Source of the DNA: Allacma fusca
Lineage: Eukaryota; Arthropoda; Collembola; Symphypleona; Sminthuridae
Length of the DNA: 64,000 bases
Direction of reading: 5' to 3'
Assembly (NCBI GenBank): GCA_947179485.1
Contig: OX359247.1
Span: forward strand, 38,292,801 to 38,356,800
Of the stretch, positions 11,949 to 43,830 are shown piece after piece. The position numbers and the translations under genes are program-made. Within the stretch, counting starts at the first letter, position 1; every line of letters starts with the position of its first letter. A model generated the notes under the pieces. The model ran no database searches, was not told the DNA's origin, and was given only the letters and a program-made list of their open reading frames with translations.

Positions 11949-12549
11949 TGTTACATCTGCCCTCCCTTCCCCGGTTGAGAAAGAGAGGGACTTGATGTAT
12001 CCCGGGTTCGGGCGCCTCATTCCCTGCTCGTAATGTCCATGATGTTGTTATGGCGCTAATCACTAATGAGGCTTGGTTTGCTTTGCTTTGATTTCTGTGT
12101 GTAGTTCACTTTTATTCGGCCAATAATAATGTTCCTTAACTGACATAACCTATAATTATAACGCTTAACATTTAACACTAAATTTGGTAATGGACCCTTT
12201 CCATTTCTGGAAACTGTCTTCTCTTGAGAATCCACTACGTGGGATTTCTGATGTCCGTGGCGGGTTCCATTCCGGACGGAATGGACCCATTGCCAATCCC
12301 TGGGTTCCAATCCTGGAGATGTTGTTCCTTTGAAGACTGAATTAGAACTCTCTGTCTTTTTCTAACTCTAACTTACAGCTAACATTTATTATTTATACCT
12401 AATTATGCTTACGCTACTTAACCTACTTAAATCTAACTCTTTATTGTTTACTTCTTGCTCAACTTCCGTTGATTTGTCCTGAGTCAGGTTTGACTGCCTA
12501 CGTGCATTTCTGACTCAGGTAATTCCTTTCCTATTATTAATACGTAACA
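11949..12549 (-). repeat. 3' LTR of the giant element
   Basis: 601 bp with TG...CA ends, identical to the 5' LTR except at 12517. It would supply the 3' processing signal for the transcript. Confidence 0.97.
12111..12116 (-). terminator. AATAAA polyadenylation signal in the 3' LTR
   Basis: The minus strand reads AATAAA within GCCGAATAAAAGTG. It lies about 280 nt downstream of the LTR TATA-like box, as expected for the R region of an LTR. Confidence 0.5.
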
Positions 12550-12559
12550 TTCCTCTTCT
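12550..12559 (-). promoter_or_regulatory. Polypurine tract of the giant element
   Basis: The minus strand reads AGAAGAGGAA immediately before the 3' LTR start TGTTACG. This is the expected place and composition for plus-strand priming. Confidence 0.85.
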
Positions 12560-15500
12560 GGGTCATTGTCGACCTCGGCAATGCTAAATTCAAGTTCAAT
12601 GTTAATTTCACAATATTTCATTCATCTGACATTTCATACATTTGTTCATCTTTGTTTACAGCACTGAATTACATGGTATTACCTACATGAATTTATCAAT
12701 TGGTTTTACCTGTGTTCATCTCTCATTTCTTTTACGTTACATATCATGTCATATACAATAACAAGTTTACATGTCATCTCTCAATTCTTGGTATGTATCA
12801 TCGGACAATTTAGTTTATACAATACATATTCATTTGTACTCCGCTATATTGATTATGGGGTTTTCGCACATCATTATCATATTTCCCTTTTACTATTCAA
12901 ACACAAATATGTTTATTCGGAAAAGTTGTATACAAACAGGTGTTCAAGCAGTAATGAAAATTATGACTAATTTTAATTTAACATTTATTCAATTTAATAC
13001 GTGTGGGTGGGTTCTGCGGGGCTATTTATTTATTATATGTTATATTTAGTGTATGTGAAAGGTGTAAAGTTCATTTAGGTCAATTCCTATCCTGCGTTCG
13101 TTGGCGATGAAAAGGTGGTGAGTAACCTTGTGCAAGGTATTGTACATAGAAATGTCTAGTGGAGTTGAATTCGGCACTAGTGCGGAAGAAACTGTTGCCA
13201 TTAAAGTTATAAACTTTCTCTGTTAAATTTGCTGTTTGCAATTTTCTTTGTTTGGGATTGGGATGAAAAGCATTGGTTACTGGAATTGTTGTATGCCGTG
13301 ATTTGGCTGTATAACGAGAGGAGTGTGAGCTGAAACTGAAAGTCAGCTAGTATCTGTTTGATCTTGTTAACCTACGGGTCAAAAGCAAACTGTAACTTGT
13401 AATCGATCTTAAAAATAGATTGTACAGTGCTATGAAACCATGCCGCTGTAACTTGTCACTACCTGTTTAATACTTGGCTTTTTATATATGTTATGTGGCG
13501 TGCTTCTCTTTCCCTGAGTTTCGATCTCTACCGTGAGTCATAGACCATACAAATCAATCTGTGAACGGATGGATGACTTCTAAAGGACATTTGATCGAAA
13601 CGATTACCTGACATTGGCGACTGTGAGTAATTTCATGTCGGGGTTTGTCAAAACTTGTTATTAGCTTTCATTCTGGTTATTGCAAATAAACTATAGTGTT
13701 GGTCGCAGATTATCTTATGAGCGGCGTTATTGGCCTTGAGTCTTCTGTTGTACTGAATTCAAGTGTTGGATTGTTTAGCTAACATTTGAGTTAGGATAGA
13801 GCTGAATCACAATGGAGTTGTATTGTTGCTCATGAAATAATACATAGGATGAATCTTTAGAAACAACTGGCGTTGGTGTCTACGGGGACGTTTCCGACGC
13901 ACCATCCATAGACATCAATCCGGTATATGTAACCATGTATTTTTATTCTATCCCGAAGAAACTGATGTTTCAGAATTTATTATGATCCTACCGATCTTTA
14001 CCTCAGACTTCTAGACCTTTAGTTTCGTCGTAACTGTTATACTTTGTATATTATACTTACTCAGCTTTAAACTGGAACGGAAACGTAGCTCAAAGGTGAT
14101 GACTATAGGGTCGCTGGGAGGCAGAGTGTGTAATTATCTACCTCTACCTGCGGGTAGCTTTCACCTGTGAACTTTCTCCGGCGGTTTCCCGTTCGATACT
14201 GTCGATCTTGGAATTGTACCGGGTTTTATAACTTCTTACCTACCAATACCAAGTTCTAACATACCTTTCGAACGGTGACGCTTCTGAATGCATTTACTGT
14301 GTTCAGAGTGACTTGAAATGATGGTTTAAACTGAAATTTGATTTTCTTGGTCAAGGGAATGAACGAGTGGATATACTCAAGTTCAACATGTTGATGAAAG
14401 CTATTCTTTTAAACGCATCAGGGTTTTGAAATCTTGTAGTAAACTTTAATGGTGCCTCCTTCTTTGGAGTATAGAAAATCGGTGCCAATGGTTGCTTTTA
14501 ATGCTAAAATAAAATTGCTATGTTCTTAGGGGAAATTCTGGGTTTCATTACAAAGTCGGCTCTATGGATATTGCACAGCTTAAGAAGACTCCCAAGTGTC
14601 ATAATTGTCAGAAGGTTGGACACTGGAGTCAGCGAGTCGAGTTCATATTAGATGATCAAATGCTTTTACGAAGATGTTGAAAACTTTGTCTTAGAAATCG
14701 AAAATAACGAAGCTTTGACAATCGTCCTCGCCTTTGTGGAAAAATTGTGTCCAGATGAATATCATTCATCACCGTAACTTGAGACTTACAAAGGGGTTGG
14801 GGTTTACGTGGCAGGCTGTAATTGTGTACGCTGTGCCTGAAAACAATTTGTCATCCTTACTGGGTTTTCGTGTTGGAAAAATAAATAATAAATGAATGAA
14901 AGTTTTGGATACTGTATTTTGTGTTGAATGTACTAATTCAGCTAGCGAAAATGTTCGCATTCCTGATTTAGATCATGTGGCTATATTGGGCTGGGGTTCG
15001 TATTTCTTTTAAACGGTAGTACGTATCACCAAATTCCTTAACCGCTTATTGAACTAAACCCTATGTTATATTTTTAACGTCCATTGCCAAAGACGAAACA
15101 AATTTTACCTCTTCCAACAATTGTGTGTAACATTCCATAAAATTATGTGAACTACAAAACCTAGCTGCCCAAAACAATTGTACTTTCCTACATCCATTCA
15201 TATTGAAAAAAAAACTGATACCTGGTGTCCATTGTGACATACAGTAAATACAAACTTATTGTTAGTAAATAATTGACTTCTGGTCAAGGGTATGACTGAT
15301 TGGATTCATCAAAATGGCTTAGGGCCAATGGAAATTATTCTGCAGGTAACCGGATACGAAAACTCCTTTGGGGAGCATTATCCGATCAGTAAAAAATGGG
15401 TATTGGTTTGCTAAAAAATTAAAGAGGATGTTGAAATTATTGATACATCCTTTAAGGTAGACTTCCTTATAGACTAGATTCTTATAAACGTGCTTGTATA

Positions 15501-17001: not shown

Positions 17002-17709
17002 TCAGATCTGCAACGTGGCTCTGCTGGTCTGCCGGTTGGCATTGGTCGTAGTGGGTCTCACTAGCTTACAGCCCATCAATTGCTCTACGGAATCCTGAAC
17101 TAAAGCCGCGGTTGCGACATTATCCATTTCCTGGTCCCGTACTAGTTGATGGCTGCCTCTCTTCCGCGAACTCCTGATCCGATAAAGGATGATGGTTACA
17201 ATCGTGATAATGATTGTTGAGACTCCTCCTATGGATCCATTGATGAGCACAGTGTAGTCCGCCTCGGGTGATGGAACCTCATTGGGCTTCCATTTTGCCT
17301 CCATGAATTCCTGTACCCATGGTGGACGTTCATCCTGAAACCGTGGCTGCATCAGCGGTTGCTGAGCTTGCCTTATGGCTTGTTGCTGGTTCAGTTCCAT
17401 CATCTCCTGGGCCCGGTTACTTGGTGCCTCCGGGTCGTATGGAACTATTTGAAGCTCTCCTTCCTCGTTATGGTGGAGTATGTGCACTTCCGGATCCTTA
17501 TGCATCATGACTGAGGCTGTGATGGCTGTTCCTCCTACTGCCATTGCTGGTATCATGGATTTTGCTAACCAGGATCCTCCTGCTGCAAGTATTGCTGCGA
17601 TCAACGGTGGTACAGGCTCCGGGTTGGGCCTTGGTAAAGGCTTGCTGTCCACTATTACGTCCGTCACAATAAGCACCATTGTGAGGCACAAAAGTAGTTG
17701 ATACTTCAT
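17002..17709 (-). CDS. Small membrane protein with signal peptide (envelope-position ORF), 235 aa
   Basis: The ATG at 17709 opens a frame with a signal-like N-terminus (LLLCLTMVLIVTDVIV, residues 5-20). A second hydrophobic, Ala/Gly-rich segment spans about 35-69, followed by a polar Gln-rich middle. A sequon NGS at 157-159 directly precedes a strong transmembrane segment (160-177). After it comes a basic stop-transfer run RIRSSRKR and a cytoplasmic tail of about 50 residues. This predicts a type I membrane or secretory-pathway protein. It sits last before the 3' LTR, where errantiviruses and vertebrate retroviruses keep env, but it is far smaller than a fusion glycoprotein and I see no fusion peptide. 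Expression would need a spliced or internally initiated message. Calling it envelope-like is inference from position and topology. Confidence 0.75.
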   Translation of the reverse strand: MKYQLLLCLTMVLIVTDVIVDSKPLPRPNPEPVPPLIAAILAAGGSWLAKSMIPAMAVGGTAITASVMMHKDPEVHILHHNEEGELQIVPYDPEAPSNRAQEMMELNQQQAIRQAQQPLMQPRFQDERPPWVQEFMEAKWKPNEVPSPEADYTVLINGSIGGVSTIIITIVTIILYRIRSSRKRGSHQLVRDQEMDNVATAALVQDSVEQLMGCKLVRPTTTNANRQTSRATLQI

Positions 17710-18277: not shown

Positions 18278-20149
18278 TCATTGACGTTCTTCTTCCTGAT
18301 TGGACGGTCCCTTCAGGGTGTCCGACTCTGCTTCTTCGTCTACTCTCGTCCGGAAGGACAGTACTACGAATGGATGAGTCCTTGTTAGAAGTAGATCTCG
18401 TTCCGCGTTGTACCGTGTCCTTCGCAGTTCTCGTATGAGTTGTTCCCTTTCCGTTGGTATTGAGATGGAAAGGTACGGCATTTGTCTTGTCGTGTAAACT
18501 GGGTCTCCTCTAGGAGCCGTGTTTATGACATCCTGTCCGGGGTCTCTGAAGATGATCTCGACGTCCGTTCGCTCCCCCAGCGTGTGGACTAGGTTTTCCA
18601 ACTCTCTTTCTGCTAGCCTGGCTTCCACAACTATAGATTGCCAGAATGGTGTTTGAAATCTTTCCATGGCCTGATTTACTAGATGTATTGAAGTCACTCC
18701 AGGCCTTCGTTCGTCCTGTTCTCTCATGGTGTAGGGTTGGTAATGGGGTCCTGCTGGTCGTTCGCTAATTCTTTCCCGTATCCGGTGAAATTGTTCTTTC
18801 TCCCAAATTCTGACCGTCACGAGTTCGTCTAGGTAGAGAAACCTTCCCGCTCCTCGGGGTTGTCGTATTGTGATGACTCCTCCCGCCTTTCTTTGTGCGT
18901 GAAGTTTTGTTGGTTTCTCTCCTTCAGCTGCGCTTGTCATTGCGAACATCCAATCCTCCCATTGCCCTATTTCCTGTAGTATTTCTGAGATTGGATTTGG
19001 TCGGGTCCCGGTGCTCTGATTGTATGACTGTAGGCCTTGCCATTCCTCTATCGCTGCCTCTTGTTGGTATAGGGTTATCATCCTTTCTGCCATGCTTGCG
19101 AATTCCGTGAAGCTGAGTAAGTGCGGGGGTATGTCTGCCAACATCTCCAAGGCTTTCTCTCCTCGTGGGGCGATTGCTTCACCTTTCACCAGGAAGCTTT
19201 CCATCCAAGTCTGTTGCTCCAACCATGTTGGTTGTGACCCTATGTCGTACCACATGCGTGTGAGTAGACTTCGTATTTCATTTCCCGTTAGTCCGTGAAG
19301 CGTTCCTTGGTGCTCTCTGCACTCCAATCTAGGTGGGATGGTAGCTCCTCGGTGACTTCCTTGCTGGCCGTTGAACAGGATTGTCCATAGTCTAGGAATC
19401 ATTGCCCCGGGGGAAATGCTGAGATTCCCCGCCATAGTCTCCAGGCGGGTATTTTCCATTGGGATGTTCCTCCGAGTTTGTCCGTATAGTAGTAGGATGT
19501 CCCTTTCCCTTGCGTCTAGGCGGCGAAAGTCCGTTGGTCTGTCCATTGCCTCGTATAACAGAGCTCGTCGTTCCCGAATGACTTCCCGTCTGTCGTTGAA
19601 GTCAATACCTTCCTGTTGCTCGTAGTATTCTTGATTTGACTCTCTGATGTTGACGGGTGGCTTTTGAATTGTGTTCAAAGCCTTTTGGAGTTGTTCCAAG
19701 TTAATTTGAGGGGGTTGTCTGCTTAAAGGGTGTGCATGCAGTCTTCCTATAAAGGTTTCCCGATACATCCTATTGACCCAACTAACTAAGTGTTGTTCTG
19801 GGGTCGGATCGTATCTCCTTTCTCTGTCACATGCCGGAAATTTTTCTGGATCTTCGGGGAATTGTCTCCGACATTTCCCACACCTGCGGAATACGTCTCG
19901 GTTCCTTCCTGTTAGCGGGATGTTCCATTGTAGTTGGTTAAGGTCCTGACGTGGTTGGTGACGTTGCCTTCGCTCGTCCAATGAGATGTCATCTAACGTG
20001 TCGTCCAGTGAATTATCTGGTGTATGGTCCAGTGGGTTTTGGATTCGTTCTTTCAAGTCCTTTATGTACCGTTGTACCACGTCCAGATCTTGAAATCTTC
20101 GTGCGTGGTCTGGGTGTGTGAAGATGACTGTCTCAGGTTGATTTCTTTC
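18278..20149 (-). CDS. Unknown 600+ aa frame, in frame after a UAG stop
   Basis: The frame is open from directly after the TAG at 20150-20152 to the stop at 18278. It has no ATG near its 5' end: the first Met is well over 100 codons in, within NRMYRETF. It therefore probably depends on UAG readthrough from the 1327-aa frame or on a non-AUG start. The product is charged and Arg/Glu/Gln-rich, with a possible zinc-binding CGKCRRQFPEDPEKFPAC near the N-terminus and a more ordinary globular middle (for example LTRMWYDIGSQPTWLEQQTW). I recognise no family. The near-absence of low complexity suggests a folded protein with a real role. Confidence 0.7.
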   Translation of the reverse strand, partial: ERNQPETVIFTHPDHARRFQDLDVVQRYIKDLKERIQNPLDHTPDNSLDDTLDDISLDERRQRHQPRQDLNQLQWNIPLTGRNRDVFRRCGKCRRQFPEDPEKFPACDRERRYDPTPEQHLVSWVNRMYRETFIGRLHAHPLSRQPPQINLEQLQKALNTIQKPPVNIRESNQEYYEQQEGIDFNDRREVIRERRALLYEAMDRPTDFRRLDARERDILLLYGQTRRNIPMENTRLETMAGNLSISPGAMIPRLWTILFNGQQGSHRGATIPPRLECREHQGTLHGLTGNEIRSLLTRMWYDIGSQPTWLEQQTWMESFLVKGEAIAPRGEKALEMLADIPPHLLSFTEFASMAERMITLYQQEAAIEEWQGLQSYNQSTGTRPNPISEILQEIGQWEDWMFAMTSAAEGEKPTKLHAQRKAGGVITIRQPRGAGRFLYLDELVTVRIWEKEQFHRIRERISERPAGPHYQPYTMREQDERRPGVTSIHLVNQAMERFQTPFWQSIVVEARLAERELENLVHTLGERTDVEIIFRDPGQDVINTAPRGDPVYTTRQMPYLSISIPTEREQLIRELRRTRYNAERDLLLTRTHPFVVLSFRTRVDEEAESDTLKGPSNQEEERQ

Positions 20150-23100
20150 CTATCCTGTACCGACCATCCAACCGTGGTCGTCAATGTGAAAAAGCGCGCT
20201 AGACAAGTCGATGAAACGCACGTTAGGATCGTTCTGGTATCCAGGTGGTCCATCCGGTTCCCGTAGTTCATCTATTCCCGGTTCCTCCTGGGTTTCGGGG
20301 TCATTTTCCTGTTTCCGCCGTCGTTGGCGACCTCTCCTCCTTTTCCTGGCATTTTCCCCTGGTGGGGTTAAGGTGTCTTGGGTGTTAAGGTTATTGATAT
20401 TTACGGAGGGCGATCTACTCGCCTCCGGAGGGGTTTCTTCATCTAATCGGGATGGTATTTGTGTCTCGGGTGAGACGCTTCTTGACCTTATTTTCTGTCC
20501 CGGTCTCTCCTTGTCTTTCGTGGCTGGTTTTTGTTGTCGTACCTGTTGTAGTCTTCCTGTCATGGTGAATGAGCAGGTGGGTAATGTGCTGCGTCCGTAT
20601 ATTCGGTCCAATTCGGGTCTTGTTCGTCGGACGTACTGTACTGGAAGTCCTTTCAGTCTCTCGTACCTCTTCTCGGCTTCCTTGTCTGCGTTCTTTTTCT
20701 TGCTTGAATGGGTGGTGAGATGGCAGGCCCCGCATGTCCAACTTTCACAAGGTATCTTCGTTGTGGTTGTTGTCCTGATTCCATTACACAGATGTGTAAA
20801 AATTTCAGGCTCCGGTGAGCTTGGTGAATCCGATTCGGTCGTGTTCTCGGCCTGCGGCGGTTGCTCCTCTGCCGTTCCCCATTCTTTCAGAATGCTGTCA
20901 CATTCCACGCATCTCCAATTCCTGTTGCTGTCCCTTAGCGCCATGGATCCGACTCCGTCTCGGCATAGACTACAGACTCTTGCTGTTGCGCCTTGAGGCG
21001 TTGGGGTGGCTGTAATTGCTTGTGCTGTGTTGTTGTGGCTGCATCTTCTGCAGCTCCATGCTCCGGAGTCCTGGAGTAAAGCCTGGAAGATGGGCGCTGC
21101 TTGACATGAGATGCATTCTTCGCTCAAAGGAAGTCCTGTAGCTGCTGCATTATTTGAAGACAATCCTGCCACCATACTTGAGAGTTGGTCCAGTGGTGTA
21201 CTGTCGACGATGTCTGGTCTGCCTGACCGGTCCGGTTGTGATGTTCCATCATTGGAGGTAATGGATATCTCCGACGTCGGTAGTATCCATTCCTCTTCTG
21301 AGATTGAAGCCGGTTCCTCTGTTGGTTGTGGTGTGGTTTCTTTTAAGATTGGTCGCTTGTCTTTTCCAGTATCCATTCCGAAGGTGGTGGCGATGTACAG
21401 CAAAATTCTAATAAAAAAATTTACCAGTTGTTGCAAGATTCCCGTCGGTCGGCCTGAAGATGATGAAGTTGCCTCTTCTTCCTCCACTTGTGTCAACATT
21501 TGTTGGAGTTGTTTCTTCAGGAACTCTCGACTGTAGGCCATTGGTGTCCATGCGTTGGTGGGTCCTACGAAAGCTGTCCTTTTCTTCCGTATTTGGGCCT
21601 GTTTTGCCTCCTCCTTCAGGAATAGCGGGTGGTCATGGAGCACACTCGGTTGTGTCTCTACCTCCCATTGGTGAAGCTCATCGTCCTCGATGTGCTCTAC
21701 GCCATTATAGACGTGTGGAATGAGAAGGGTGATGGTCCAATTTGCGTCCGTTAAGGTGGTTGCGAGCATGAAGTAGACTACTTCACCTATGGCAACATCT
21801 CGTACCGGATGGACGTAGTCTTCTCCTTGTGTTAAGGTATGTGGATCCGTCTGCATTTGTCGTTGCACCTGGTGTAGATGGTCGCCTGTGACAATGCTTC
21901 TCCTAGTTCTCCTGGTCGTTGGTTCATGTATCAGTGCCTCCTGTACTACCTCACCTATTACGTTTTGTATTTCACCTTCATATTTATCGAAAAATTCGAT
22001 TTTCCAATCTAGGGGTAGTGGCACAAATTTCGTTAAGAATCCTATGGCGATTCCTTTCAAAGCCTGTTGAGCCAGGTGGTGTGTTCTATTTATGGCGTTT
22101 GACATAATCCAGATAACTTGGGGTAGCTTCAGACGGTCCCGTTCCACCTGTCGTCGGTCCTCCTCTTCTGACGTTGGTTCTGGGGCGTGCCGTCGTTCCC
22201 TCTTTTCTTTCGTGGCCATCTCTTCTTTCACTGCCTGGTTCCAGAGCTTTGCCGGTGATGTCTCATTCAGGTAATGTGCGTTCCGTGGAGTAATTACTCC
22301 TGGTAACGCTGTCGTTGCCTTGCCCGGATCACGTAGGAATTCCTCCATCTCCTTCTCCTCACTGGCGTTGACGGGCATTATCATCCAGATTGGCCTTTGG
22401 TCCTGAAGTTGTGCTTCGATGAGTACCCAATCTTGTGGAATTTTGACCGTCTGAGGTGGGGTTCCGGGTGACCTGATGGCTTTCATGAATGATGATACAT
22501 AGACTCCCATCACTGCAATTCCTGTTGCACAGATCCCTACAACGCTTGCTACACCCTTCACGACGCTATTCTTCCATAGTCTCCGTGCGGTGTCAGAGCC
22601 AAAAGCCTGGTAACGGGGTGCTGCGTTGCATGCTGGTGGGAAGTCTGGTAAGTCGTATGGGTCGTAGTGTCCTATCTCGTCCTCGTCCTCCGTGTTCGTG
22701 AAGCCGGGATTGGTGTAGTCGTGGCCTTCTGCATTGACCGGACTCATTTCATCTATTTTGGCCCACCACGGGCGTTGTGGTGACCATGGATATGGGTTGG
22801 GTTTCCTCTGCAGTTCCGTGTCTTGTAACTGCTTTTTCCCATGTTGGTGACCTATTGCAGATGCTATTAAACCCAAAATGAGAAGTGTTGAGAACACATT
22901 GTTACCAATCCTTGGGATGGGTCCTCCGCGTCCTCCTCCTCCTCCGGCTTGGGTTGCCATATCTGGCGTGTGCGGTGGCGTTTGGATGGATGAGTTGGCT
23001 TGGATGTGTTCCTCGTCGTCCCCGTCTATGATGATGGTCTCGTACTGAGGTGAGTTTGCGAAGTCCGCCAGGGAAAGTTGATGACTATCTGTTACATCCG

Positions 23101-24133: not shown

Positions 24134-25269
24134 CTGTGATCCTCTTCTGTTTTGTTTCTGACCTCCCTCGGGGGTTGTGGTTGCGTTGGAGTCCTGTCCC
24201 TTCGTATCCTTGCATTTAGTGGACTGTCCTGTCGGTTACGTGACCTATCGCTTTCCCTTCGTTTCCGGATTTCGGATGAAGAGTCGGGTTCCCGTTTCCG
24301 TGTTCTAGAGTCCCTGGAGCTGTACCCATCTCTGGAACTTCCTCTTGATCCTCCCGGTCTGGCGTCCTCTCGGGTTTCCCTTACTCTTCCTCGTCCCCTT
24401 CCAACTGGAGGGTTGAATGCTAGGTTTGCTGCATTCCTTGACGTATCTCTTCTCCTTCCTTCCGGTTCGTCTTGGTTGGCTGGTCCGTAATTTCTTTCTA
24501 TTCGTCTGGCCGTTTCCTCCCGGGCCATTCGTTCCCGTTCCTCTTGTGGAGTTGGCCATTCGCTTACTTTGGAGATATGTACTCTTGTTGTCCTGAAATC
24601 CTGATTATCCGTGAATCTTCTTCTTTCCGAGTACTTTGTTGTACTGTATCTTTCTTTTTGTAGACTGTCTTTGTACGCCCACGGGTCCCTCGGATAGTCT
24701 CCGTCCGGTATTAGGTTGTTTCCTACATCCTTTTCCGTCTTGTACGGTTGTATTAACCATGGATCTCCTGGCTGTCGGTTCCGTAGTCTACAATTTGGAG
24801 GTTTCCTCCGGATTGGCGTGGGGTTGAAATCTTGTCCTTTAAATAGGTAGACCAGTTCCTCTGGTGCCTTTGCTCCATCTTCGATATCTTTCTGGTCTTC
24901 TGGGAAGTTTATGGAACCACAGTAGTGAGGTTCTCTCTTGTAAGTCCCAAAATTGATTGATAACTCTCTTCCGTTTTTGAGAGCTCCTAACAATATTGAA
25001 TGGATGATGGTTCCTTTCTCATCTCTTCCTTTAATGATGATGAGATTGGGAATTCTTCCGTCAAGGCGGTGTACTGCTTCCAATCTTCCTGTATCTGCAT
25101 TCGGTAGAATCTTCGCCTGGGGTGGCTCGATATCTGTTTGGGTCACATATTGTGCCCAATATCGGGTCCTGTCCTTGTCATCGCGGTCTACCTCTGGTCG
25201 GTCGTCTTCTCGTCGGCGGGACTCGTTGGTTCGAGACCCTGACGAACGTTGTGACCTGCTGTCGGTCAT
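24127..25269 (-). CDS. Arg/Ser-rich 380-aa protein, unknown
   Basis: The ATG at 25269 overlaps the stop of the 67-aa frame as ATGA, a classic termination-reinitiation layout. Residues 1-35 and about 270-380 are Arg/Ser/Asp/Glu-rich with SR-like runs (RDGYSSRDSRTRKREPDSSS). This suggests RNA binding or phosphorylation. The central part (about 35-180) looks folded, with IPNLIIIKGRDEKGTIIHSI and a hydrophobic core, but I recognise no domain. Its end overlaps the open -1 frame of the 1327-aa product. Confidence 0.7.
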   Translation of the reverse strand: MTDSRSQRSSGSRTNESRRREDDRPEVDRDDKDRTRYWAQYVTQTDIEPPQAKILPNADTGRLEAVHRLDGRIPNLIIIKGRDEKGTIIHSILLGALKNGRELSINFGTYKREPHYCGSINFPEDQKDIEDGAKAPEELVYLFKGQDFNPTPIRRKPPNCRLRNRQPGDPWLIQPYKTEKDVGNNLIPDGDYPRDPWAYKDSLQKERYSTTKYSERRRFTDNQDFRTTRVHISKVSEWPTPQEERERMAREETARRIERNYGPANQDEPEGRRRDTSRNAANLAFNPPVGRGRGRVRETREDARPGGSRGSSRDGYSSRDSRTRKREPDSSSEIRKRRESDRSRNRQDSPLNARIRRDRTPTQPQPPREVRNKTEEDHSW

Positions 25270-34732: not shown

Positions 34733-34795
34733 TTCGTCGTCTATATACCTTCTTACTGGCGGTCGTTCAACTGGTATCTCTTCAATGTGTATGAC

Positions 34796-37700
34796 TCAGT
34801 GTTGGTTTGGTGGTATGTAGGGGTTGATAATGTTGATGTTCAGTTGGTTAACTAGATTGTTTCGGCGGACTAGCTGTCCGTGTCGTAGGTCGTAAAAATT
34901 TTCGCGGTTGTTGCGGTTGTTCTGGTCTGAGTCGTCGCTGCTGGAGCTGGATGATGAGTTGTCTCCTGAATCTCCAGGTTCGTCTCTCGCTCTCCTTCTA
35001 CCTCCTATGTGGCGACCTCCTCTGACTCCTCCTCGACCTGGGTTTCCTCTTTGTTGAGGTGCTCGTGGGTTATTCCCGTTGTTATTGTTTGGCGGTGTAC
35101 GTGAGTTACCTGCTCCACTTGGTCCTGGGCCTGGTGGTCGTGGGTTATTGTTGCCTATCTGACGACGTGCACGTAAAGGTGGTCTTTTTCTGTTATTTCG
35201 ATCCTTGGTGATTACTATCTGGTATTCTGGATTAAGATCCTGTAGTTGTAATCTTGGGAAGAAATGTACTATTCCGCCTTCGTCTACTAGCTGAATTTCT
35301 CCTTCGGGACTTAATTCCCTTTCAGCTGCTCTTTGTGTTGCTTCTTGAAGTTCTTCGGCGAATATTCGTAAAGCAAATTCGCCGGGAACGGCTTGTATGA
35401 CGTAGTCTTCGATGTCTATTGCGATTCTGAAGTCGTCTTCGTGTACCTCGGAGTTGTTGCTCCTGTGGCTGTTGTTTTCCCTTTGTGGAGTTGGTCGTGA
35501 GCTCTCCCTTTCTTCTACCTGCTCTTCCTCCTCTTCGCTGGAGGTTTCTGCTAGAACTTCTATATCTGGATTGTATAGCAACCTGGTCAGAGCTTCCTGA
35601 TGGTCGTGTTCATCTATTAACCCTGTGAAAAATGCTACGGGTATTCTTTGTCGGTGTATTCCGTTGGGTAAGTTGATGTGTCGATGGTAAAGTCTATAGT
35701 TCCTAGCGATGTAGCTGGTAACTTGGTCTGGGTCTTCTGACCTTCTAATTATTAATCGTCGGAATGCTATTGGTGGGTCGTCACTCGAGATGATTTCTTC
35801 GTATTCTGTTCTTGTAGCTGCTACAGCTTCGAAGTTAGCATCAATTGCCGGTATGAAATTTCGTTGGATAAGGTCGTCTTCCCTATTGAAATAGATTAAT
35901 CGTCTCACCTGACCTGTCCAAGTTGCTTCATGTGCTGCTTCTCTCGCTCTACGCCTGTCGTTGACTCGGCACAAATGTGTTACCTGGCGTACGGTTGCCT
36001 GGCTGCGAACGAGGTTTCTTTCTGTCGCGTCGTTCTCGTCGAGGTAAATTCTACCACTTGGTCCAATCCAGGTGTTTACGCTGTATCGTGGGTCGTCAAC
36101 CCAACTTGCTCCTGTTTGACCTGTTGACGTGGCCTGTGATATCGCTGGTGGCCTTACCACAGTCGGTGTTGGTCGTGTGGTGGTTGCTGTTGTCGTAGTA
36201 GTTGTTGAGAGGTTGATTGATCTGTTTACTGATCTTTCCCTCGGCCTGGGTGGTATTGCAATAGTTGTTGCCAGTTGCGTTGCTGTCGCTGGCGGTACCA
36301 CGGGTGACCTTAGTGTTTCCCCTTGGGTGTAAGACCTGTTGCTATTTGAAGTATTCTCAGGTTGGCTGGTGTTTATAACTGTTACCAGCTCTCCTCCTTC
36401 TATGAGGGTCCTATCGTTGTTAGATGTCCTGGTTACTAGGTCACGTCCTCTCAGAATGTGGCGAAAAATGCCTGCTCGACCTAAAGGTAAGCTGTTGTAC
36501 AGTGATCCTCCGGGGGATTGGTATACTTTGAATCTTTCTCGGTTGTTAAATGCCTGGTAGTAGGTACCGTCGATGTTTCTGATGGTTCTCACCACTGTTT
36601 CTGATGGTCGCTGCTCTCGGATGATCTGTCCGGCCCGTACGAATCCTCTCAGATCTACTGTACTGATCGTTAAAGCTGGTGCGCGTAGAGCATGGACTGG
36701 TGGGTGAGTGTAGATTCTTCCTCCGGGTGACTGGTATACCCGTTGTGACACGAAGTCAACGTCGTCGTCGTTGTTGAATTCTGTGTTGACGTATAATCTG
36801 CTCGTAGCTTCACTTGGTCTTGGCGTAGGCCGGGCTACCGTGCCTAACTGTGTGGAAGGGGTCTCTTCTGTAGGAGTTTCCAAATCGTCTCTGATGGTTT
36901 GATTCCTAAACCGTAAGTTTGGTTGAGTTGGTTGGTTCCTGGGTGTAGTTTCTGTAGCTCGTTGGTGTTCTTGAGTGACAGGTGTGAGCTGTACTGGATT
37001 TTCCTGTAGAGTTATGTCTTGTGTTATGTCAGGGTAGTGCGTGAATCTTTGTTCTGCTGCCCCTGGGGTATTGCGACGAGAATTACCTGACCTCGGGGTT
37101 ACTCCGGATTTGGTCGTGGAGTCCCGAATTGTCGTTGGCGTACTTGTCTTGACTCCTATGAGCGTCTTGGGTGTTGTCGAGTCGGTCTCGTTATTAGTTG
37201 GTCTGCTACAGGTGTCTCCTGATCGTCTGGTTAAGTTGTTGTATGGCAGCTCACTTGACGTTGGTCGTACCTGTTCACCTGAATTTCTTGAAATTGTTGG
37301 TTGGTTGTGAGCTGGTCTCCTACTTGTGAGACTTGAGTTAAAGTCGTCGCTCTGGCTCGTGGGAATTCTGTAGGTTCGCCTAGGTGTCTTTCCGAACGAA
37401 GGGGTCCTTGTTGTCGGATTTACCTGGTCGTCGCTATCTGTCCCACTATTTGCTCGAGTTGATGTTAGATTGAGGCTTTTGACCTTGTTTAATTGCGTTA
37501 TTGTGGGTCTTTCTTCCCCAAATTTCTTCCTTATTTCTTCTGCAACAGCTATATCGGCTGTGCTGGGTTCTCTGGTTGAACTGGAAGCAGTTGCTTGATT
37601 GTCTCTTGACGTTCGTGGTTGCCCTTTGTGTATTTTTCTGGATAGTGAGATGGGTTTACCTGTTGGTCCTGTAAGTGGTTGGGTTATTGATTGGCTGTTA

Positions 37701-39844
37701 AGATCGACGTAGTTCCTAGCAAATTTTGACCTTTGAGGTGTGCGTACTTCTTCGTGGGGTAGTATGGGGTCTATGAGATCTGTTCGTCGTAATCCCTGGT
37801 AAACTGCGTCGTGCTCAAATTCTGGTCGGTCATAAATGTCTGTCGGTCTTACTGTTGCTCTTGACGCTGGTTCTAATAAACCCGTTATCGGATTTCGTGA
37901 AAATGGTGGGTGTCGTGAATCGTACCTCAAATGCCTGCTTAAAATGTCAGTACCATTAGGGTCTACGACTCTACGTTCGCCCGTCTCGTTGTTATTCGCG
38001 TCCTGATCTGAGCCTGACCTTTCTTCGCTACTGGAATAAGCTCGAGTACGCCGTCTGTGACCTTGTATGCTGGTATGCCTCCTAGCATAGGTTACCGTAG
38101 TGTACCTAGGTTGATCGTTAAAGAAAATTTGGCCTCCTTGGTGCCTTGTTCTACTTCCAAATGAAAGTACGTGTCTTTCTAGCAGATTTCTAATTAATTC
38201 GGTTGGTATGAAAATATTTTCCCTGATGTTTCTACTGTGAGTGAGTGCTCTCCTCAATTCCTCTGATTCGTCCCCATTTGGCAATCGATTGTAGTTTCGC
38301 CTATGAATAATCTCTGCTATTCTAATAAAGAAGTGTGTCCATTGGACCGTACCTGTGTAGGTGTGGTGTGCTAACCTGTGGTAAACCTCTATCCAGTGTC
38401 CTTCCAATTCTGTCACTATGAGAAAATTCTCGGTTAGATTCCTCTGAAGTCCCTCCGATCGCGTTAGCTCCTCGAAGCACCCTTCAGGTATCTCTACACC
38501 TGTGTGAATTCTCAGTTGTGTGAGATTTGTCTGCACTAGACTTGCTTCGTCACTTACTGGTGCGATCTGTGGTATTTGTTCTGTTATCAGATCTTCCTGT
38601 ACTGGAGCTTCAGACACCTGGCTGAATGTTCGTTGACGTACTGTGTCACCTCTGTTAGAAAATGCTGGTGTAATTTTTGAAGGTAATTGTTGCACTTTCG
38701 GTTGTGTTGTTGTTTGGTCACGCTCACTCTCTGTACTACCTCTGGTTTGGTTCACTTGTTGTGAACCTGCACTTGCTGTTGATACTTGCTGATGATTTAC
38801 GTGTGGAGTTATTTGTCCAGTAGTGTTGTTGTTCGATACCTCTTCATCTTCTTTATCTGCATCCGGTTGGGGTTGTGCAATCGTTGGTTGAGCAATTTCC
38901 TCTTGGTCAACAGGTCTTATTGTTCCATTGACATCGGCTTTGTTGGGTGATGTAATGTCCTGTCCATCTGCTGATGTAGAAGCCTGTTGCTCAATCTTCT
39001 CAAAACTCGTGTGATTGCTCTCTGGATCCGTGATGATTTCGAAGGATGAGGTGGCTGCACTACTTGTTGGTCTTGACTCCGGTTCATTGAACTGTGCCAA
39101 CATTTCTTTAATGACCGGGTTTGCATCCTTACTCACGTAGATGGGCTGTCCCGCTGCATTTCGCATGAATTCGCCTATGACCTCGCCTTGTCCTTCCGGA
39201 TTTACCGGTGGTACAGACTGTTGGTCGCGTAATTCTAGTTGCGTGGGTGATACGTGGGTTTTCCTTCCGCTCGGAGTCCCGCTTGTTGTGGGTCCACTAT
39301 GGGTACCCTTCGCCTGCTCGGATTCTCCGATTGTGGATCTGATTACCGTACCCGTATCCTCTATTGAATCCTCGAAAACGAGCCTAATTCTAGTACTCGA
39401 TGGTCCAGCGGATTGGTTTGGGGAGGGTCTACTGAGAGAACCATGTTGTTGTGTTGGTGTTCCTTTTGGACTTACGGTAGACCCACTGTGGGGACTTGTT
39501 ACCGAGTCCAGGAACACGTCATCGTCACCCTTATTGTCTGGACTTTCTCGGTATCCCACCGCCTGCGAGTCTCTTGGACTATGTGCAGATGCTGCGGGGG
39601 TTCTGTAAACCGATTTCTCCGAGACGGATGATGTACTGCTGGTTGCGGAGTCCCCTGACTCCCGTGCTGCTTTTGCTTTAGCTTTTGCCATCTTTCTTTC
39701 CAATTTGGCTTTGGCCATAGCAACTTCAAGACTCTCTTCATTATCTGGCACTGGTCCCGTTGATCGCGTAGTCCTTCGAGATGTTGTTGAAGGTGCAGGT
39801 GTTGACTTCCGTTGAGATGGTTGTTGTTTTCTCTTGGAATCCAT
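34796..39844 (-). CDS. ORF1, 1682-aa unknown protein upstream of gag
   Basis: The ATG at 39844 follows the 3.4-kb leader. The N-terminus is basic with a heptad-like KAKLERKMAKAKAKAARE, then long Ser/Thr/Gln/Pro-rich low-complexity regions. Residues about 430-570 and 1330-1500 look more globular. A motif recurs three times: VYQSPGGRIY (about 1036), VYQSPGGSLY (about 1111) and IGPSGRIY (about 1261). The C-terminus has an acidic SSEEEEEQVEE, an RGG-like RGGVRGGRHIGGRRR and a Ser/Asp run. The stop is UGA and the same frame continues into gag. Ty3/gypsy elements normally start with gag, so a frame of this size before it is exceptional. I recognise no domain. It could be a gag N-terminal extension reached by UGA readthrough, or a separate protein. 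Confidence 0.75.
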   Translation of the reverse strand: MDSKRKQQPSQRKSTPAPSTTSRRTTRSTGPVPDNEESLEVAMAKAKLERKMAKAKAKAARESGDSATSSTSSVSEKSVYRTPAASAHSPRDSQAVGYRESPDNKGDDDVFLDSVTSPHSGSTVSPKGTPTQQHGSLSRPSPNQSAGPSSTRIRLVFEDSIEDTGTVIRSTIGESEQAKGTHSGPTTSGTPSGRKTHVSPTQLELRDQQSVPPVNPEGQGEVIGEFMRNAAGQPIYVSKDANPVIKEMLAQFNEPESRPTSSAATSSFEIITDPESNHTSFEKIEQQASTSADGQDITSPNKADVNGTIRPVDQEEIAQPTIAQPQPDADKEDEEVSNNNTTGQITPHVNHQQVSTASAGSQQVNQTRGSTESERDQTTTQPKVQQLPSKITPAFSNRGDTVRQRTFSQVSEAPVQEDLITEQIPQIAPVSDEASLVQTNLTQLRIHTGVEIPEGCFEELTRSEGLQRNLTENFLIVTELEGHWIEVYHRLAHHTYTGTVQWTHFFIRIAEIIHRRNYNRLPNGDESEELRRALTHSRNIRENIFIPTELIRNLLERHVLSFGSRTRHQGGQIFFNDQPRYTTVTYARRHTSIQGHRRRTRAYSSSEERSGSDQDANNNETGERRVVDPNGTDILSRHLRYDSRHPPFSRNPITGLLEPASRATVRPTDIYDRPEFEHDAVYQGLRRTDLIDPILPHEEVRTPQRSKFARNYVDLNSQSITQPLTGPTGKPISLSRKIHKGQPRTSRDNQATASSSTREPSTADIAVAEEIRKKFGEERPTITQLNKVKSLNLTSTRANSGTDSDDQVNPTTRTPSFGKTPRRTYRIPTSQSDDFNSSLTSRRPAHNQPTISRNSGEQVRPTSSELPYNNLTRRSGDTCSRPTNNETDSTTPKTLIGVKTSTPTTIRDSTTKSGVTPRSGNSRRNTPGAAEQRFTHYPDITQDITLQENPVQLTPVTQEHQRATETTPRNQPTQPNLRFRNQTIRDDLETPTEETPSTQLGTVARPTPRPSEATSRLYVNTEFNNDDDVDFVSQRVYQSPGGRIYTHPPVHALRAPALTISTVDLRGFVRAGQIIREQRPSETVVRTIRNIDGTYYQAFNNRERFKVYQSPGGSLYNSLPLGRAGIFRHILRGRDLVTRTSNNDRTLIEGGELVTVINTSQPENTSNSNRSYTQGETLRSPVVPPATATQLATTIAIPPRPRERSVNRSINLSTTTTTTATTTRPTPTVVRPPAISQATSTGQTGASWVDDPRYSVNTWIGPSGRIYLDENDATERNLVRSQATVRQVTHLCRVNDRRRAREAAHEATWTGQVRRLIYFNREDDLIQRNFIPAIDANFEAVAATRTEYEEIISSDDPPIAFRRLIIRRSEDPDQVTSYIARNYRLYHRHINLPNGIHRQRIPVAFFTGLIDEHDHQEALTRLLYNPDIEVLAETSSEEEEEQVEERESSRPTPQRENNSHRSNNSEVHEDDFRIAIDIEDYVIQAVPGEFALRIFAEELQEATQRAAERELSPEGEIQLVDEGGIVHFFPRLQLQDLNPEYQIVITKDRNNRKRPPLRARRQIGNNNPRPPGPGPSGAGNSRTPPNNNNGNNPRAPQQRGNPGRGGVRGGRHIGGRRRARDEPGDSGDNSSSSSSSDDSDQNNRNNRENFYDLRHGQLVRRNNLVNQLNINIINPYIPPNQH

Positions 39845-41233: not shown

Positions 41234-42542
41234 TGCGCTCACGCCTCGGCCCTTCAATCCCTATACTAAATTAAACTATGATTTTCTTAAACGTATGTTT
41301 CTATCCTAATGCCAATGTGTCCCCGCTCACTATACTTCGGCCTTTGAGACTAAATTTTGTCAAACTTAATTAATTGCGAATTCCCTCGGCGCTCAATTAG
41401 ATCCTCGGCCTTTCCGAAAAATTTATGGGTTCTTAAAACTATGCTTTTTGATGGTCTGATGTACCTGCGCTCTCTACCTGAGCTATTTAGGTAAAATTTG
41501 CAAAAATGACTAACTGAAATCTGATATCTGCGCTCAATCCGGCCCTTCAGATTAAAATTTTGAGTTCCTAATATTTACCAAGTCCATGGTAAATTGATTG
41601 TCTAATTACCCCGTGCTCAATCCGGCCCTTCGGGTGGAAAAGAAAAAATAGTGGAGAAGAAAATGTGAAAAGTTTAAGATAGATTCATATTTTTATCCGT
41701 GTAAAATTTTACACCTCAGATAAATAAAGTAATTTGGAGAGAAAAGTTTTGATTATTTACCTTACTAGCGTAAGGTTCCCTAACTAAATAATTTGGAGAT
41801 CAAAAGAATGTTTAAAGAACATTTGCGCTCATAGCCTCGGCCTTTCAAATGCTAACTTAACCCTAGAAGGCGAAATGTGGAAGTATGAAAAATGTGAGAA
41901 AAATGTAAGATAGATCCCTATTTTTATCCGTGTAATCCCTACACTTCAGATAATTAAAGTAATTTGGAGTTAAAGAGTTTTTAATTATTTGCCGCTTAGC
42001 CTAAACTCCTTAATTAGTTAATTTGGAGGTCAAAAGAAATTCTAAAGAACATTTGCGCTCGTATCCTCGGCCTTTCAAATGCTAACTTATTCCTAGAAGA
42101 CGAAACTGTTTTTAGAGTGAAATGAGAAAGTATTTATTTTTGAATACTAAAAAAAATAATTAAAATAAATGATAGATCGTATTGTGTTCATAACCTGAAC
42201 TTGAAAGTGAATTTCGAGAGTCATTAATACTAAAAAAGTGAAATCAAATTGCTTTTGAAAGATTTCCGAATTCTTATTTCTGAGCCCCGTCCTCCTGACA
42301 GAGCCCTAAATAATTTGAAAGTGCATTTTGAGTAAAGATTTTATAGAAATTTTCACGCTCAATCCGGCCCTTTGAAAATCTGGCTTAAACTTACGAAGAG
42401 AAAGACTACTATAGACTGTGCTCAATTCCGTCGGCCCTCCAGCCCCAAATAGTACCCTTTACAATACTGACACTACATGCCTAGCGCTCAATCCGGCCCT
42501 TCTAAGCTCTCTATGTGTAGTGCTCAATTTCCGTCGGCCCTC
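41234..42542 (-). repeat. Array of a GC-rich AAGGGCCGGATTGAGCGC-type motif
   Basis: About eleven copies of a degenerate motif occur in AT-rich DNA. On the element strand the core is AAGGGCCG(A)G...TGAGCGC. Plus-strand copies (GCTCAATCCGGCCCTT and variants) are near 41234, 41324, 41389, 41530, 41614, 41825, 42055, 42356, 42418, 42485 and 42521. Four copies are essentially identical over 16 bases. Confidence 0.7.
41665..42110. repeat. Two tandem copies of a 230-bp unit in the leader
   Basis: The unit running from AAGATAGAT through ATTTTTATCCGTGTAA, AAAGTAATTTGGAG and GCCTCGGCCTTTCAAATGC repeats with a period of about 230 bp (for example ATTTGCGCTC at 41821 and 42051). The copies have clear divergence. 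Confidence 0.75.
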
Positions 42543-43207
42543 CTAGACTTCTAAAAAGATAGAGATAGATTTATACTATTGGGAGAAGTAAATTTTGTTT
42601 TGAAAATGTAAGTACTTACACTTACTATGTGAATCTGAAAGCCAGAAATACATGCAAATATATGCACCATTTTCTAATTTGAACCTATGATTTGCTCATA
42701 ATCTCTGGTTAATTACTCCAAAGAATCATATGCTCCTCGTAACTACGTACAAAAGTTATGCTTAGCCCCTAACTCATGATATTCAAGTAAAGAAAAATGT
42801 TACTCACCTTATTAGGTACTCACCTTGCCCCGAAAATTTCCTTGTGAGGCAAGGGCCTAACTCACTAGTCACTTTTTATTAAACAATCTATGGCCATTTC
42901 GAAAGTTTTTATTATAGTGCTGCACTAGGATTCTTGTAATTTCTTGTCCGGATCCGCGCGTGATGATGATGTCCGATTTTTCTTGAGAGATGAACTTTTT
43001 TGGCTGTTTTTATCTGACTTTCTCTCAAAGTTTCGGGTGCTCGGTTATAGTACTATACAATGTATAGCCCGGTAGTTGAGCCCATACTTCCATCGAGAGA
43101 GTTTATAAATCAACGGAAATGCTTGCTACAAAGCGACTTTCCTGTGATCCAGGGTCATCCGCAGGTCCCCGACCTTTGGATACTCCAGGCCCTTACCGTG
43201 ACCTGAA

Positions 43208-43225
43208 GTCCTGACAGAAACACCA
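43208..43225 (-). promoter_or_regulatory. Primer binding site, tRNA-Val type
   Basis: Directly inside the 5' LTR the minus strand reads TGGTGTTTCTGTCAGGAC. The first 11 bases are the exact complement of the 3' end (CAGAAACA plus CCA) of the tRNA-Val at 4823-4895. CAGG also matches after one mismatch, so a different Val isoacceptor may match fully. Confidence 0.8.
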
Positions 43226-43826
43226 TGTTACATCTGCCCTCCCTTCCCCGGTTGAGAAAGAGAGGGACTTGATGTATCCCGGGTTCGGGCGCCTCATTCC
43301 CTGCTCGTAATGTCCATGATGTTGTTATGGCGCTAATCACTAATGAGGCTTGGTTTGCTTTGCTTTGATTTCTGTGTGTAGTTCACTTTTATTCGGCCAA
43401 TAATAATGTTCCTTAACTGACATAACCTATAATTATAACGCTTAACATTTAACACTAAATTTGGTAATGGACCCTTTCCATTTCTGGAAACTGTCTTCTC
43501 TTGAGAATCCACTACGTGGGATTTCTGATGTCCGTGGCGGGTTCCATTCCGGACGGAATGGACCCATTGCCAATCCCTGGGTTCCAATCCTGGAGATGTT
43601 GTTCCTTTGAAGACTGAATTAGAACTCTCTGTCTTTTTCTAACTCTAACTTACAGCTAACATTTATTATTTATACCTAATTATGCTTACGCTACTTAACC
43701 TACTTAAATCTAACTCTTTATTGTTTACTTCTTGCTCAACTTCCGTTGATTTGTCCTGAGTCAGGTTTGACTGCCTACGTGCATTTCTGACTCTGGTAAT
43801 TCCTTTCCTATTATTAATACGTAACA
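43226..43826 (-). repeat. 5' LTR of the giant element
   Basis: 601 bp, TG...CA. It should hold the promoter. It is followed on the plus strand by the ATAT target duplication. Confidence 0.97.
43667..43674 (-). promoter_or_regulatory. TATA-like box in the 5' LTR
   Basis: The minus strand reads TATAAATA in the first part of the LTR as transcribed, a plausible core promoter about 280 nt before the AATAAA equivalent. The same sequence occurs in the 3' LTR. Confidence 0.45.
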
Positions 43827-43830
43827 ATAT

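What the first reader, a model, noticed from the sequence alone, without database searches (positions are those of the whole stretch)
11949..43826. A 31.9-kb, apparently young giant Ty3/gypsy retroelement with intact frames
Two 601-bp LTRs with one difference, a 4-bp target duplication, PBS and purine tract bound one unit of 31,878 bp. The only comparably large LTR elements I know of are plant Ogre and planarian Burro. This one has all gag-pol catalytic motifs plus about 5 kb of coding before gag and about 9 kb after pol. Near-identical LTRs and open frames imply recent, perhaps current, activity.
Basis: partly seen in the sequence, partly recalled or inferred. Interest (0 to 1): 0.93.

Follow-up and report, generated by a model that had tools for sequence, protein, structure and literature searches.

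The report
Giant springtail retroelement family, recently active
A springtail genome carries many recent copies of a retrovirus-like mobile element about 30,000 bases long, several times the usual size, with large genes that match nothing known; the copy in this window is a real recent insertion but several of its genes are broken.

Summary
In detail: 11949-43826 is one 31,878-bp LTR element (internal part 30,676 bp; LTRs 601 bp, one difference; ATAT duplications; tRNA-Val primer site; purine tract). It is not a join: the host, the springtail Allacma fusca, holds at least 16 LTR pairs of this family and a sister family (about 28.7 kb) with the same downstream genes. LTR-primer junctions of both families occur 159 times. 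LTR pairs differ at 15 of 9,616 sites (family I, 16 pairs) and 0 of 5,697 (family II, 10 of 19 pairs), so the lineage moved recently. "Intact frames" is wrong for this copy: two stops and two frame changes break its Gag, a small ORF and the big downstream ORF. Real layout: 2,260-aa Gag, 2,626-aa Ty3/gypsy Pol in the -1 frame, 96-aa ORF, ~2,340-aa orphan polyprotein with a membrane module, and a 235-aa signal-peptide/transmembrane protein. Gag core, downstream pieces and the membrane protein are under purifying selection (median omega 0.08-0.18; noncoding controls 0.70, 0.85), and the downstream proteins had no relative in the libraries searched. Best reading: a giant, recently active Ty3 lineage, perhaps envelope-bearing; the envelope role is inferred.

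The parts
11945..11948 (.). target-site duplication ATAT, left copy
11949..12549 (-). 3' LTR (element sense is the minus strand), 601 bp, TGTTAC...GTAACA
12550..12559 (-). polypurine tract AGAAGAGGAA beside the 3' LTR
   Evidence: read by eye; the same AAGAGGAA or its complement stands beside five of the eight unpaired LTRs of other copies
17002..17709 (-). ORF-D, 235-aa protein with signal-like hydrophobic start, hydrophobic Gly/Ala-rich stretch and C-terminal transmembrane-like segment
   Evidence: hydropathy only; median omega 0.169; 52-53% identical in sister family
18278..20149 (-). ORF-C, third piece (623 aa, C-terminal domain); in the other copies aligned it is not cut off from the middle piece by the stop seen here
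   Evidence: median omega 0.077
20150..24235 (-). ORF-C, middle piece (1,361 aa), ends here at a stop absent in 12 of 12 other copies aligned
   Evidence: median omega 0.181
21374..22903 (-). membrane module inside ORF-C: hydrophobic segments at both ends, furin-like sites at 22201, 21910 and 21589, N-glycosylation sequons at 22369, 22267 and 21742, all six present in the sister family
24127..25269 (-). ORF-C, first piece (from its ATG at 25269); separated from the middle piece by a one-base frame change
25266..25469 (-). small ORF between pol and ORF-C, 67 aa here, 96 aa in 10 of 10 other copies, 108 aa in one sister-family copy
25476..33356 (-). Pol, 2,626 aa: PR motif at residue 138, RT YLDD 581, RNase H 738-809, integrase H2C2 1525-1567 and D,D35E 1595-1691; about 640-aa spacer between RNase H and IN; long C-terminal extension
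33110..34795 (-). Gag core: Retrotrans_gag (just under cut-off), Asn/Gln-rich region, one CCHC knuckle at 33217-33176; stop kept in all 13 copies read, pol follows in the -1 frame
   Evidence: median omega 0.075
34796..39844 (-). about 1,680-aa N-terminal extension of Gag, cut off from gag here by a stop absent in 12 of 12 other copies read; one ~2,260-aa frame in 11 of 27 family-I rows
41660..42105 (.). 230-bp tandem repeat (1.9 copies) in the 5' leader
43210..43225 (-). primer binding site, 15 of 16 bases complementary to the 3' end of tRNA-Val(AAC) with CCA added
   Evidence: compared by eye
43226..43826 (-). 5' LTR, 601 bp
43827..43830 (.). target-site duplication ATAT, right copy

Best explanation
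This is one defective but recent copy of a giant Ty3/gypsy LTR-retroelement lineage that is, or very recently was, mobile in Allacma fusca. Shown: LTR pair, ATAT duplication, primer site fitting tRNA-Val(AAC), purine tract, Ty3-type PR-RT-RH-IN, many copies of two families, near-identical or identical LTRs, and purifying selection on the gag core, the middle and last pieces of ORF-C and ORF-D. Inferred: a genomic RNA of about 31 kb runs from the right-hand LTR leftward; the 2,260-aa Gag is made from it and Pol by -1 frameshifting in the gag-pol overlap; the small ORF, a few bases after the Pol stop, is reached by reinitiation or splicing; ORF-C and ORF-D come from later AUGs, probably on spliced mRNAs. 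The middle of ORF-C and all of ORF-D enter the secretory pathway and act as an envelope-like or cell-to-cell transfer module, cut at furin-type sites; the enlarged Gag packs the oversized RNA; the cDNA goes into ATAT. The lineage persists as many parallel sub-lineages that replicate with functional proteins, while inserted copies such as this one lose frames.
For: Structure. Domains; best solved-structure match is Ty3 Gag-Pol 7q5b, E 1.2e-98. Multi-copy: 40 LTR hits scored of 131 candidates, 16 pairs; 30 exact family-I LTR-PBS junctions, 159 for both families with up to 1 mismatch, 0 in the reversed control of each. Recent: 15 mismatches of 9,616 sites in 16 pairs, besides two small indels; 0 of 5,697 in 10 of the 19 family-II pairs. 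Target: ATAT on both sides in 14 of 16 family-I pairs and on the outer side of 8 of 8 unpaired LTRs. Constraint: median omega 0.075 (gag core), 0.077 and 0.181 (ORF-C pieces), 0.169 (ORF-D) against 0.854 and 0.699 in two noncoding controls. Family II: ORF-C about 48-50% identical, ORF-D 52-53%, same order. Gag frame stop-free at full length in 11 of 27 family-I and 43 of 51 family-II rows. Membrane module kept.
Against: No transcript, protein or particle data. ORF-C and ORF-D match no known envelope: no Pfam family over its cut-off, no PDB match better than E 0.14, no protein at E up to 0.001 for ORF-C. The furin-like motif is not special to the module: ORF-C, rich in Arg, has nine such motifs and fifteen sequons in all, of which three and four lie in the module. 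Fold prediction of the C-terminal domain failed (pLDDT 33.9). The only XXXYYYZ heptamer in the gag-pol overlap (33162) is, by my reckoning, out of phase for a -1 slip. One of 16 family-I pairs has non-matching flanks (B) and one an altered LTR end (K). Copy J, which lacks at least most of the post-pol region, has an ATAT duplication and one LTR difference, so those genes may not be needed in cis. Noncoding stretches differ less between copies (0.032 and 0.077 at formally synonymous sites; LTRs 3.8%) than synonymous sites of genes (0.14-0.23), which I cannot explain.
Confidence: 0.6

Rival explanations
1. Purely intracellular giant retrotransposon: ORF-C and ORF-D are accessory proteins (RNA export, particle assembly, membrane-bound assembly sites, suppression of host defence) and there is no extracellular phase.
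For: No similarity to any known fusion protein. Much of ORF-C outside the membrane module is hydrophilic, and its C-terminal piece has the lower omega of the two pieces measured. The module sits in the middle of a polyprotein, unlike a classical Env. Copy J, without at least most of these genes, still has an ATAT duplication and one LTR difference. Nine furin-like motifs occur over the whole Arg-rich protein.
Against: Three furin-like sites and three sequons lying together between hydrophobic segments are kept across families only about 50% identical; ORF-D has a signal-like start plus a transmembrane-like segment and is under selection.
Confidence: 0.38
2. Repeated entry from an exogenous giant retrovirus circulating in springtails (a special case of the envelope reading): each copy is an independent endogenisation, which is why copies differ by 2-4% while their own LTRs are identical.
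For: LTRs within a copy 0 of 5,697 or 15 of 9,616 different, but between copies 2.3% (family II, 45 comparisons) and 3.8% (family I, 276 comparisons); coding differences between copies are mostly synonymous; no old copy among the 26 LTR pairs measured.
Against: The same pattern follows if several active germline lineages coexist and old copies are purged; the searches score best matches first, so old copies are under-sampled (40 of 131 and 40 of 296 candidates scored). No relative of ORF-C's last piece in the viral contigs.
Confidence: 0.2
3. Gene conversion or collapsed assembly made the LTRs look identical, and the copies are old.
For: Homogenised LTRs are known in principle (recalled).
Against: ATAT duplications are intact in 14 of 16 family-I pairs, 26 pairs at separate places show the same low divergence, and between-copy LTR divergence is about 24 times the within-pair one in family I.
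Confidence: 0.02
4. The 31.9 kb is a nest of several elements or an assembly join.
For: None found apart from unusual length.
Against: Family-I pairs of like spacing lie on four chromosomes and one unplaced contig, with the same gene pieces inside the copies read, and the sister family repeats the plan.
Confidence: 0.01

Closest known systems
Burro giant gypsy-like elements of planarians (as described in PMC6431247, passages read)
   Same: Ty3/gypsy Pol, over 30 kb in total, much extra coding, proviral origin suspected by the review's authors.
   Different: Burro's internal region is up to 25 kb, here 30.7 kb with 601-bp LTRs. Burro has thousands of copies, one 4,873-aa polyprotein with Env homology in frame between gag and pol, and BIR, BCL2, ankyrin, MATH and other domains; no such domain was found here, the extra coding lies in front of gag, inside and behind pol, and about 159 junctions were counted. 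Different phylum.
Ogre (plants)
   Same: [quoted passage not shown] one upstream of gag (recalled).
   Different: Ogre is 16-25 kb with LTRs of 1.9-6.5 kb and an 11-13 kb internal region; here the upstream coding is one frame with gag in other copies, and most extra coding follows pol.
Insect errantiviruses / insect endogenous retroviruses (recalled; PMC12992720 seen only as a listing)
   Same: Arthropod Ty3 elements with a downstream membrane-protein gene and AT-rich short targets (recalled).
   Different: Several times longer; no Env domain recognised; primer tRNA-Val; RT position unresolved.
Ty3-like elements with a Monjiviricetes-type fusion protein (P0002, P0140; unnamed database proteins)
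   Same: Large Ty3 polyproteins with an acquired envelope.
   Different: They do not group with this element in the RT-RNase H tree and their envelope family is not found here.

Membership tests
Ty3/gypsy (Metaviridae) | PR-RT-RNase H-IN order, Ty3-type RT/RNase H | tested here: met
   Pfam order; best PDB match Ty3 Gag-Pol with 334 bits, next other group 144 bits (an 'enzymatic polyprotein', caulimovirus as recalled), retroviruses below 100
Ty3/gypsy (Metaviridae) | LTRs with TG...CA ends, PBS, PPT, short target duplication | tested here: met
Ty3/gypsy (Metaviridae) | named clade within Ty3 by RT tree | tested here: inconclusive
   172-row quick tree of fetched proteins: long branch at an open fork; no named errantivirus, Burro or Ogre sequence was available
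Burro | in-frame Env between gag and pol | tested here: not met
   no Env-type Pfam match in Gag or Pol frames; gag stop then pol in the -1 frame
Burro | BIR, BCL2, ankyrin, MATH/TRAF, dUTPase domains | tested here: not met
   none at E up to 1 in the long frames of the element
Ogre | very long LTRs (1.9-6.5 kb) | tested here: not met
   601 bp and 557-581 bp
Enveloped retrovirus-like element (errantivirus-like) | recognisable Env/fusion protein family | tested here: not met
   (limits of these libraries apply)
Enveloped retrovirus-like element (errantivirus-like) | membrane glycoprotein features (signal, TM, furin sites, N-glycosylation) under selection | tested here: inconclusive
   sequence features present and kept in the sister family, but hydropathy and motif counts only, and furin-like motifs are frequent in this Arg-rich protein
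Enveloped retrovirus-like element (errantivirus-like) | particles and transfer between cells or individuals | not testable with these tools
   needs experiments

The most novel reading that the evidence does not exclude
A lineage of giant enveloped reverse-transcribing elements, with genomic RNA of about 28-32 kb, an internal region longer than any LTR retroelement in the review passages read here, and an entry/transfer system made of proteins unrelated to any known viral fusogen, which is still spreading in globular springtails.
Probability: 0.3. Interest if true: 0.93.

Novelty: new variant of a known kind. Interest (0 to 1): 0.82.

Why it matters
[quoted passage not shown] Here two families of about 28.7 and 31.9 kb, with short LTRs and mostly coding interiors, have moved recently in a small arthropod genome, with full-length Gag frames in 54 of 78 rows scored. 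That makes the upper size limit of LTR retroelements, and how an outsized Gag and unknown membrane proteins get round it, directly testable in a living animal, and it gives large orphan protein families with measured selection.

Tried and rejected
Nested insertion or assembly join: rejected. Stop-codon read-through between the upstream ORF and gag, and between the two last downstream pieces, which I first suspected from same-frame neighbours: rejected, both stops are absent in the 12 of 12 other copies compared. Termination-reinitiation through an ATGA overlap at 25266-25269, seen in the window: rejected as a family feature, because other copies have a 96-aa ORF that overlaps ORF-C. Paralogy of ORF-D with the membrane part of ORF-C: no support (hhalign probability 1%). 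Internal repeats in the Gag extension: a short motif seen three times, not pursued. Solo LTRs among the 8 unpaired hits: none, each borders a PBS or PPT. Fold prediction from a single sequence: useless, so no fold search was made. RT tree: unresolved. Viral contigs: 1 pattern match, no relative. Literature searches: (no paper); no listing shows a giant LTR element in springtails. The library holds open PMC papers only, and the springtail genome paper PMC12693562 was seen only as a listing.
Full report
Where it is. The window lies on contig C10 of a genome of 392,743,791 bases in 91 contigs. C10 is 66,084,411 bp, exactly the scaffold N50 printed for the globular springtail Allacma fusca (chromosome 3), and the other large contigs fit its chromosome table to within 0.01 Mb (first of three parts of PMC10427803 read). 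The printed total, 392,786,974 bp in 95 scaffolds, differs slightly. That assembly is from PacBio HiFi reads with Hi-C (same source).

The element. LTRs of 601 bp at 11949-12549 and 43226-43826 differ at one site and are flanked by ATAT on both sides. Coding is on the minus strand, so the 5' LTR is the right-hand one. Next to it stands a primer site that fits 15 of 16 bases of the CCA end of tRNA-Val(AAC), whose gene happens to lie in the window at 4823-4895; some sister-family copies fit 16 of 16 (compared by eye, CCA added). The purine tract is beside the left LTR. Pol has the catalytic motifs of protease, RT, RNase H and integrase, and its best solved relative is Ty3. The internal region is 30,676 bp.

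It is a family, not a join. A genome search with the LTR scored 40 of 131 candidates: 16 pairs and 8 single hits. All 8 single hits border a primer site or purine tract inside and ATAT outside, so none is a solo LTR. In the 16 pairs (window copy and 15 fetched) the LTRs differ at 15 of 9,616 aligned sites, with one small indel each in pairs I and K; 14 of 16 have perfect ATAT duplications, one (B) has different flanks and one (K) an altered LTR end. Between copies the LTRs differ by 3.8% on average (276 comparisons among 24 LTRs, 0.8-7.7%).

A sister family. The protein of the middle downstream ORF found 7 further loci at about 50% identity (34 scored of 485 candidates). Two were fetched: each has a 2,207-aa ORF-C and a membrane ORF-D in the same order; the end of pol (by eye) precedes in one and a small ORF in both. 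The gag of the C12 copy lies about 9 kb upstream; the family-II pol was not searched on its own. Its LTRs are 557-581 bp; 19 pairs were found among 40 scored of 296 candidates, 17 of them 27.5-28.9 kb long, one 23.1 kb and one 4.1 kb. In the 10 pairs fetched there is no mismatch in 5,697 sites, while copies differ from one another by 2.3% (45 comparisons). Of 9 readable pairs 8 have ATAT and one ATAC; the C12 copy also has ATAC. The LTR-primer junction of both families occurs 159 times (up to one mismatch), and the exact family-I form 30 times; the reversed patterns gave 0. If all were full length this would be about 4.6 Mb or 1.2% of the genome (my arithmetic, an upper estimate, since some are deleted).

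What the frames really are. (1) The 1,696-aa frame before gag and gag itself are one frame: 12 of 12 other copies read there (B-I, K, L, N, O; J, M and P not fetched for this region) have no stop at that point, and all 12 keep the gag stop. In the genome-wide gag search (78 scored of 939 candidates) 11 of 27 family-I rows have a stop-free frame of at least 2,256 aa and 43 of 51 family-II rows one of at least 2,196 aa. (2) Between pol and the next gene lies a 96-aa ORF in 10 of 10 copies whose region I read (B, C, M and P left out as not fully covered); it is cut to 67 aa in the window by a one-base change. (3) The three frames after it are one frame of about 2,340 aa: whole in copies E and O among the 14 fetched copies that carry the region (two of them, C and P, only in part; the J piece fetched has none of it), and stop-free in 4 of the 27 family-I rows. 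The window copy has a one-base frame change there (11 of 12 other copies covered show no length change, copy I a different one) and a stop absent in 12 of 12 aligned copies. Most other copies carry lesions of their own in this frame. In family II, 21 of 21 scored loci (of 661 candidates, best first) have ORF-C open at 2,206-2,207 aa.

Selection. Over pairs of copies, median omega is 0.075 for the gag core (13 copies), 0.077 for the last and 0.181 for the middle piece of ORF-C (15 and 13 copies) and 0.169 for ORF-D (15 copies); two noncoding stretches read as if coding gave 0.854 and 0.699 (14 copies each, ranges 0.41-2.83 and 0.27-2.23; 6 of 91 pairs without synonymous change fell out of the second). 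The first ORF-C piece, compared with the window copy only, gave 0.10-0.22 in 12 copies. The downstream genes are thus constrained like gag or somewhat less, and the divergence between copies arose while their proteins worked. Median synonymous divergence between copies is 0.14-0.23, more than in the noncoding controls (0.077 and 0.032) or the LTRs (3.8%), which I cannot explain; constraint on cis signals or recombination between copies may be involved. Against LTR pairs that hardly differ, it means many separate sub-lineages, all young as insertions. With a neutral rate of about 3e-9 per site and generation (recalled, not measured for this species) the mean family-I insertion would be about 260,000 generations old, and family II below about 90,000 (from 0 of 5,697 sites).

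The unknown proteins. ORF-C (2,341 aa, P0064) had no protein at E up to 0.001 among 4,922 candidates from 5.8 billion sequences (the method needs shared 5-residue words), no Pfam family above cut-off and nothing better than E 0.14 in the PDB; ORF-D had sub-threshold matches only (it was not searched in the protein collection). In ORF-C a segment of about 510 residues (window 22903-21374) begins with a signal-like hydrophobic segment, has a Gly/Ala-rich hydrophobic stretch, three furin-like sites and three sequons kept in the sister family, and ends in another hydrophobic segment. Against reading too much into this: ORF-C has nine furin-like motifs and fifteen sequons in all. After the third site come a short hydrophobic stretch, a charged helix-like stretch and the hydrophobic end, which resembles in outline a small fusion subunit; that is my reading of the letters, not a test. 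A region with several CxxC pairs (residues 1397-1527) is nearly absent from family II. The C-terminal 650 residues hold the best conserved 60-residue block (80% between families) and look mostly helical in an untrustworthy model.

Mechanism and rivals. Replication by LTR-primed reverse transcription with tRNA-Val as primer and integration at ATAT follows from the anatomy and from established Ty3 biology. The gag stop and -1 pol frame stand in 13 of 13 copies read, but I found no standard slippery site in phase. How ORF-C and ORF-D are expressed is open. I put an envelope-like role for ORF-C's middle and ORF-D at about 0.5, because the features kept between families are those of a processed secretory protein. 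An intracellular role remains nearly as likely, and copy J, 20.8 kb long, which lacks at least most of the post-pol region but has an ATAT duplication and one LTR difference, shows either help in trans or a later deletion.

Placement. In a quick tree of 172 RT-RNase H rows (the giant element and 171 of 184 rows, those with at least 340 query positions aligned) the giant element is a long branch at an open fork with the window's second element, outside a group of 168 rows with support 81; it does not join the pseudoscorpion, tick and metagenome elements that are its nearest hits at about 41-44% identity, nor the two elements with a Monjiviricetes-type fusion protein. The program warns of long branches meeting. 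No named Burro, Ogre or errantivirus sequence was available, so clade membership was not tested.

Novelty. The review of giant transposons (passages read) names Burro, with an internal region of up to 25 kb, as the record among LTR elements of its time; here it is 30.7 kb with short LTRs. None of the searches named in Tried and rejected lists a giant LTR element in springtails. I call it a new variant of a known kind: the replication core is Ty3, the rest is new.

Noticed in passing
46822-56808: A second, ordinary-sized Ty3-type element in the window (direct repeats of at least 300 bp, 9,687 bp apart, 99% identical), with gag/CCHC, PR and RT-RH-IN frames on the minus strand.
   Followed up: partly
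62342-63976: Frame with a reverse-transcriptase domain (PF00078) and no RNase H or integrase match, on the plus strand, perhaps a LINE.
   Followed up: no
4823-4895; 9683-10568: tRNA-Val(AAC) and three tRNA-Gln genes within 8 kb of the insertion; 11 of 23 tRNA-Val-like starts of the genome lie on C10 between 38.29 and 38.89 Mb, near which two sister-family gag loci also lie (C10:38226013, C10:38387226).
   Followed up: no
G000:C12:12604943-12609060: A 4.1-kb unit between two equal-scoring family-II LTRs, perhaps a short non-autonomous derivative.
   Followed up: no
G000:C8:35456392-35471047: Three LTR-primer junctions spaced 7,317 bp apart in the same direction, a tandem array of family-I 5' parts.
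   Followed up: no
G000 C12, C5, C8 (L047-L049, L051): Four near-full-length COX1 copies outside the small contig C91 (14,936 bp, taken for the mitochondrion), with TGA as the only stop inside: probably recent nuclear copies of mitochondrial DNA.
   Followed up: no
window 25266-25469 and other copies: The 96-aa ORF overlaps the start of ORF-C in another frame in the other copies, a dual-coding stretch.
   Followed up: partly
6581-7572: Two nested inverted repeats of about 100 bp (92-96% complementary).
   Followed up: no
pol residues about 1120-1163 (window about 30000-29870): Several family-I copies match this stretch twice in contiguous DNA, so it looks like a small in-frame repeat that varies between copies.
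   Followed up: no
(family I): Noncoding parts and LTRs differ less between copies than synonymous sites of the genes do; unexplained.
   Followed up: no
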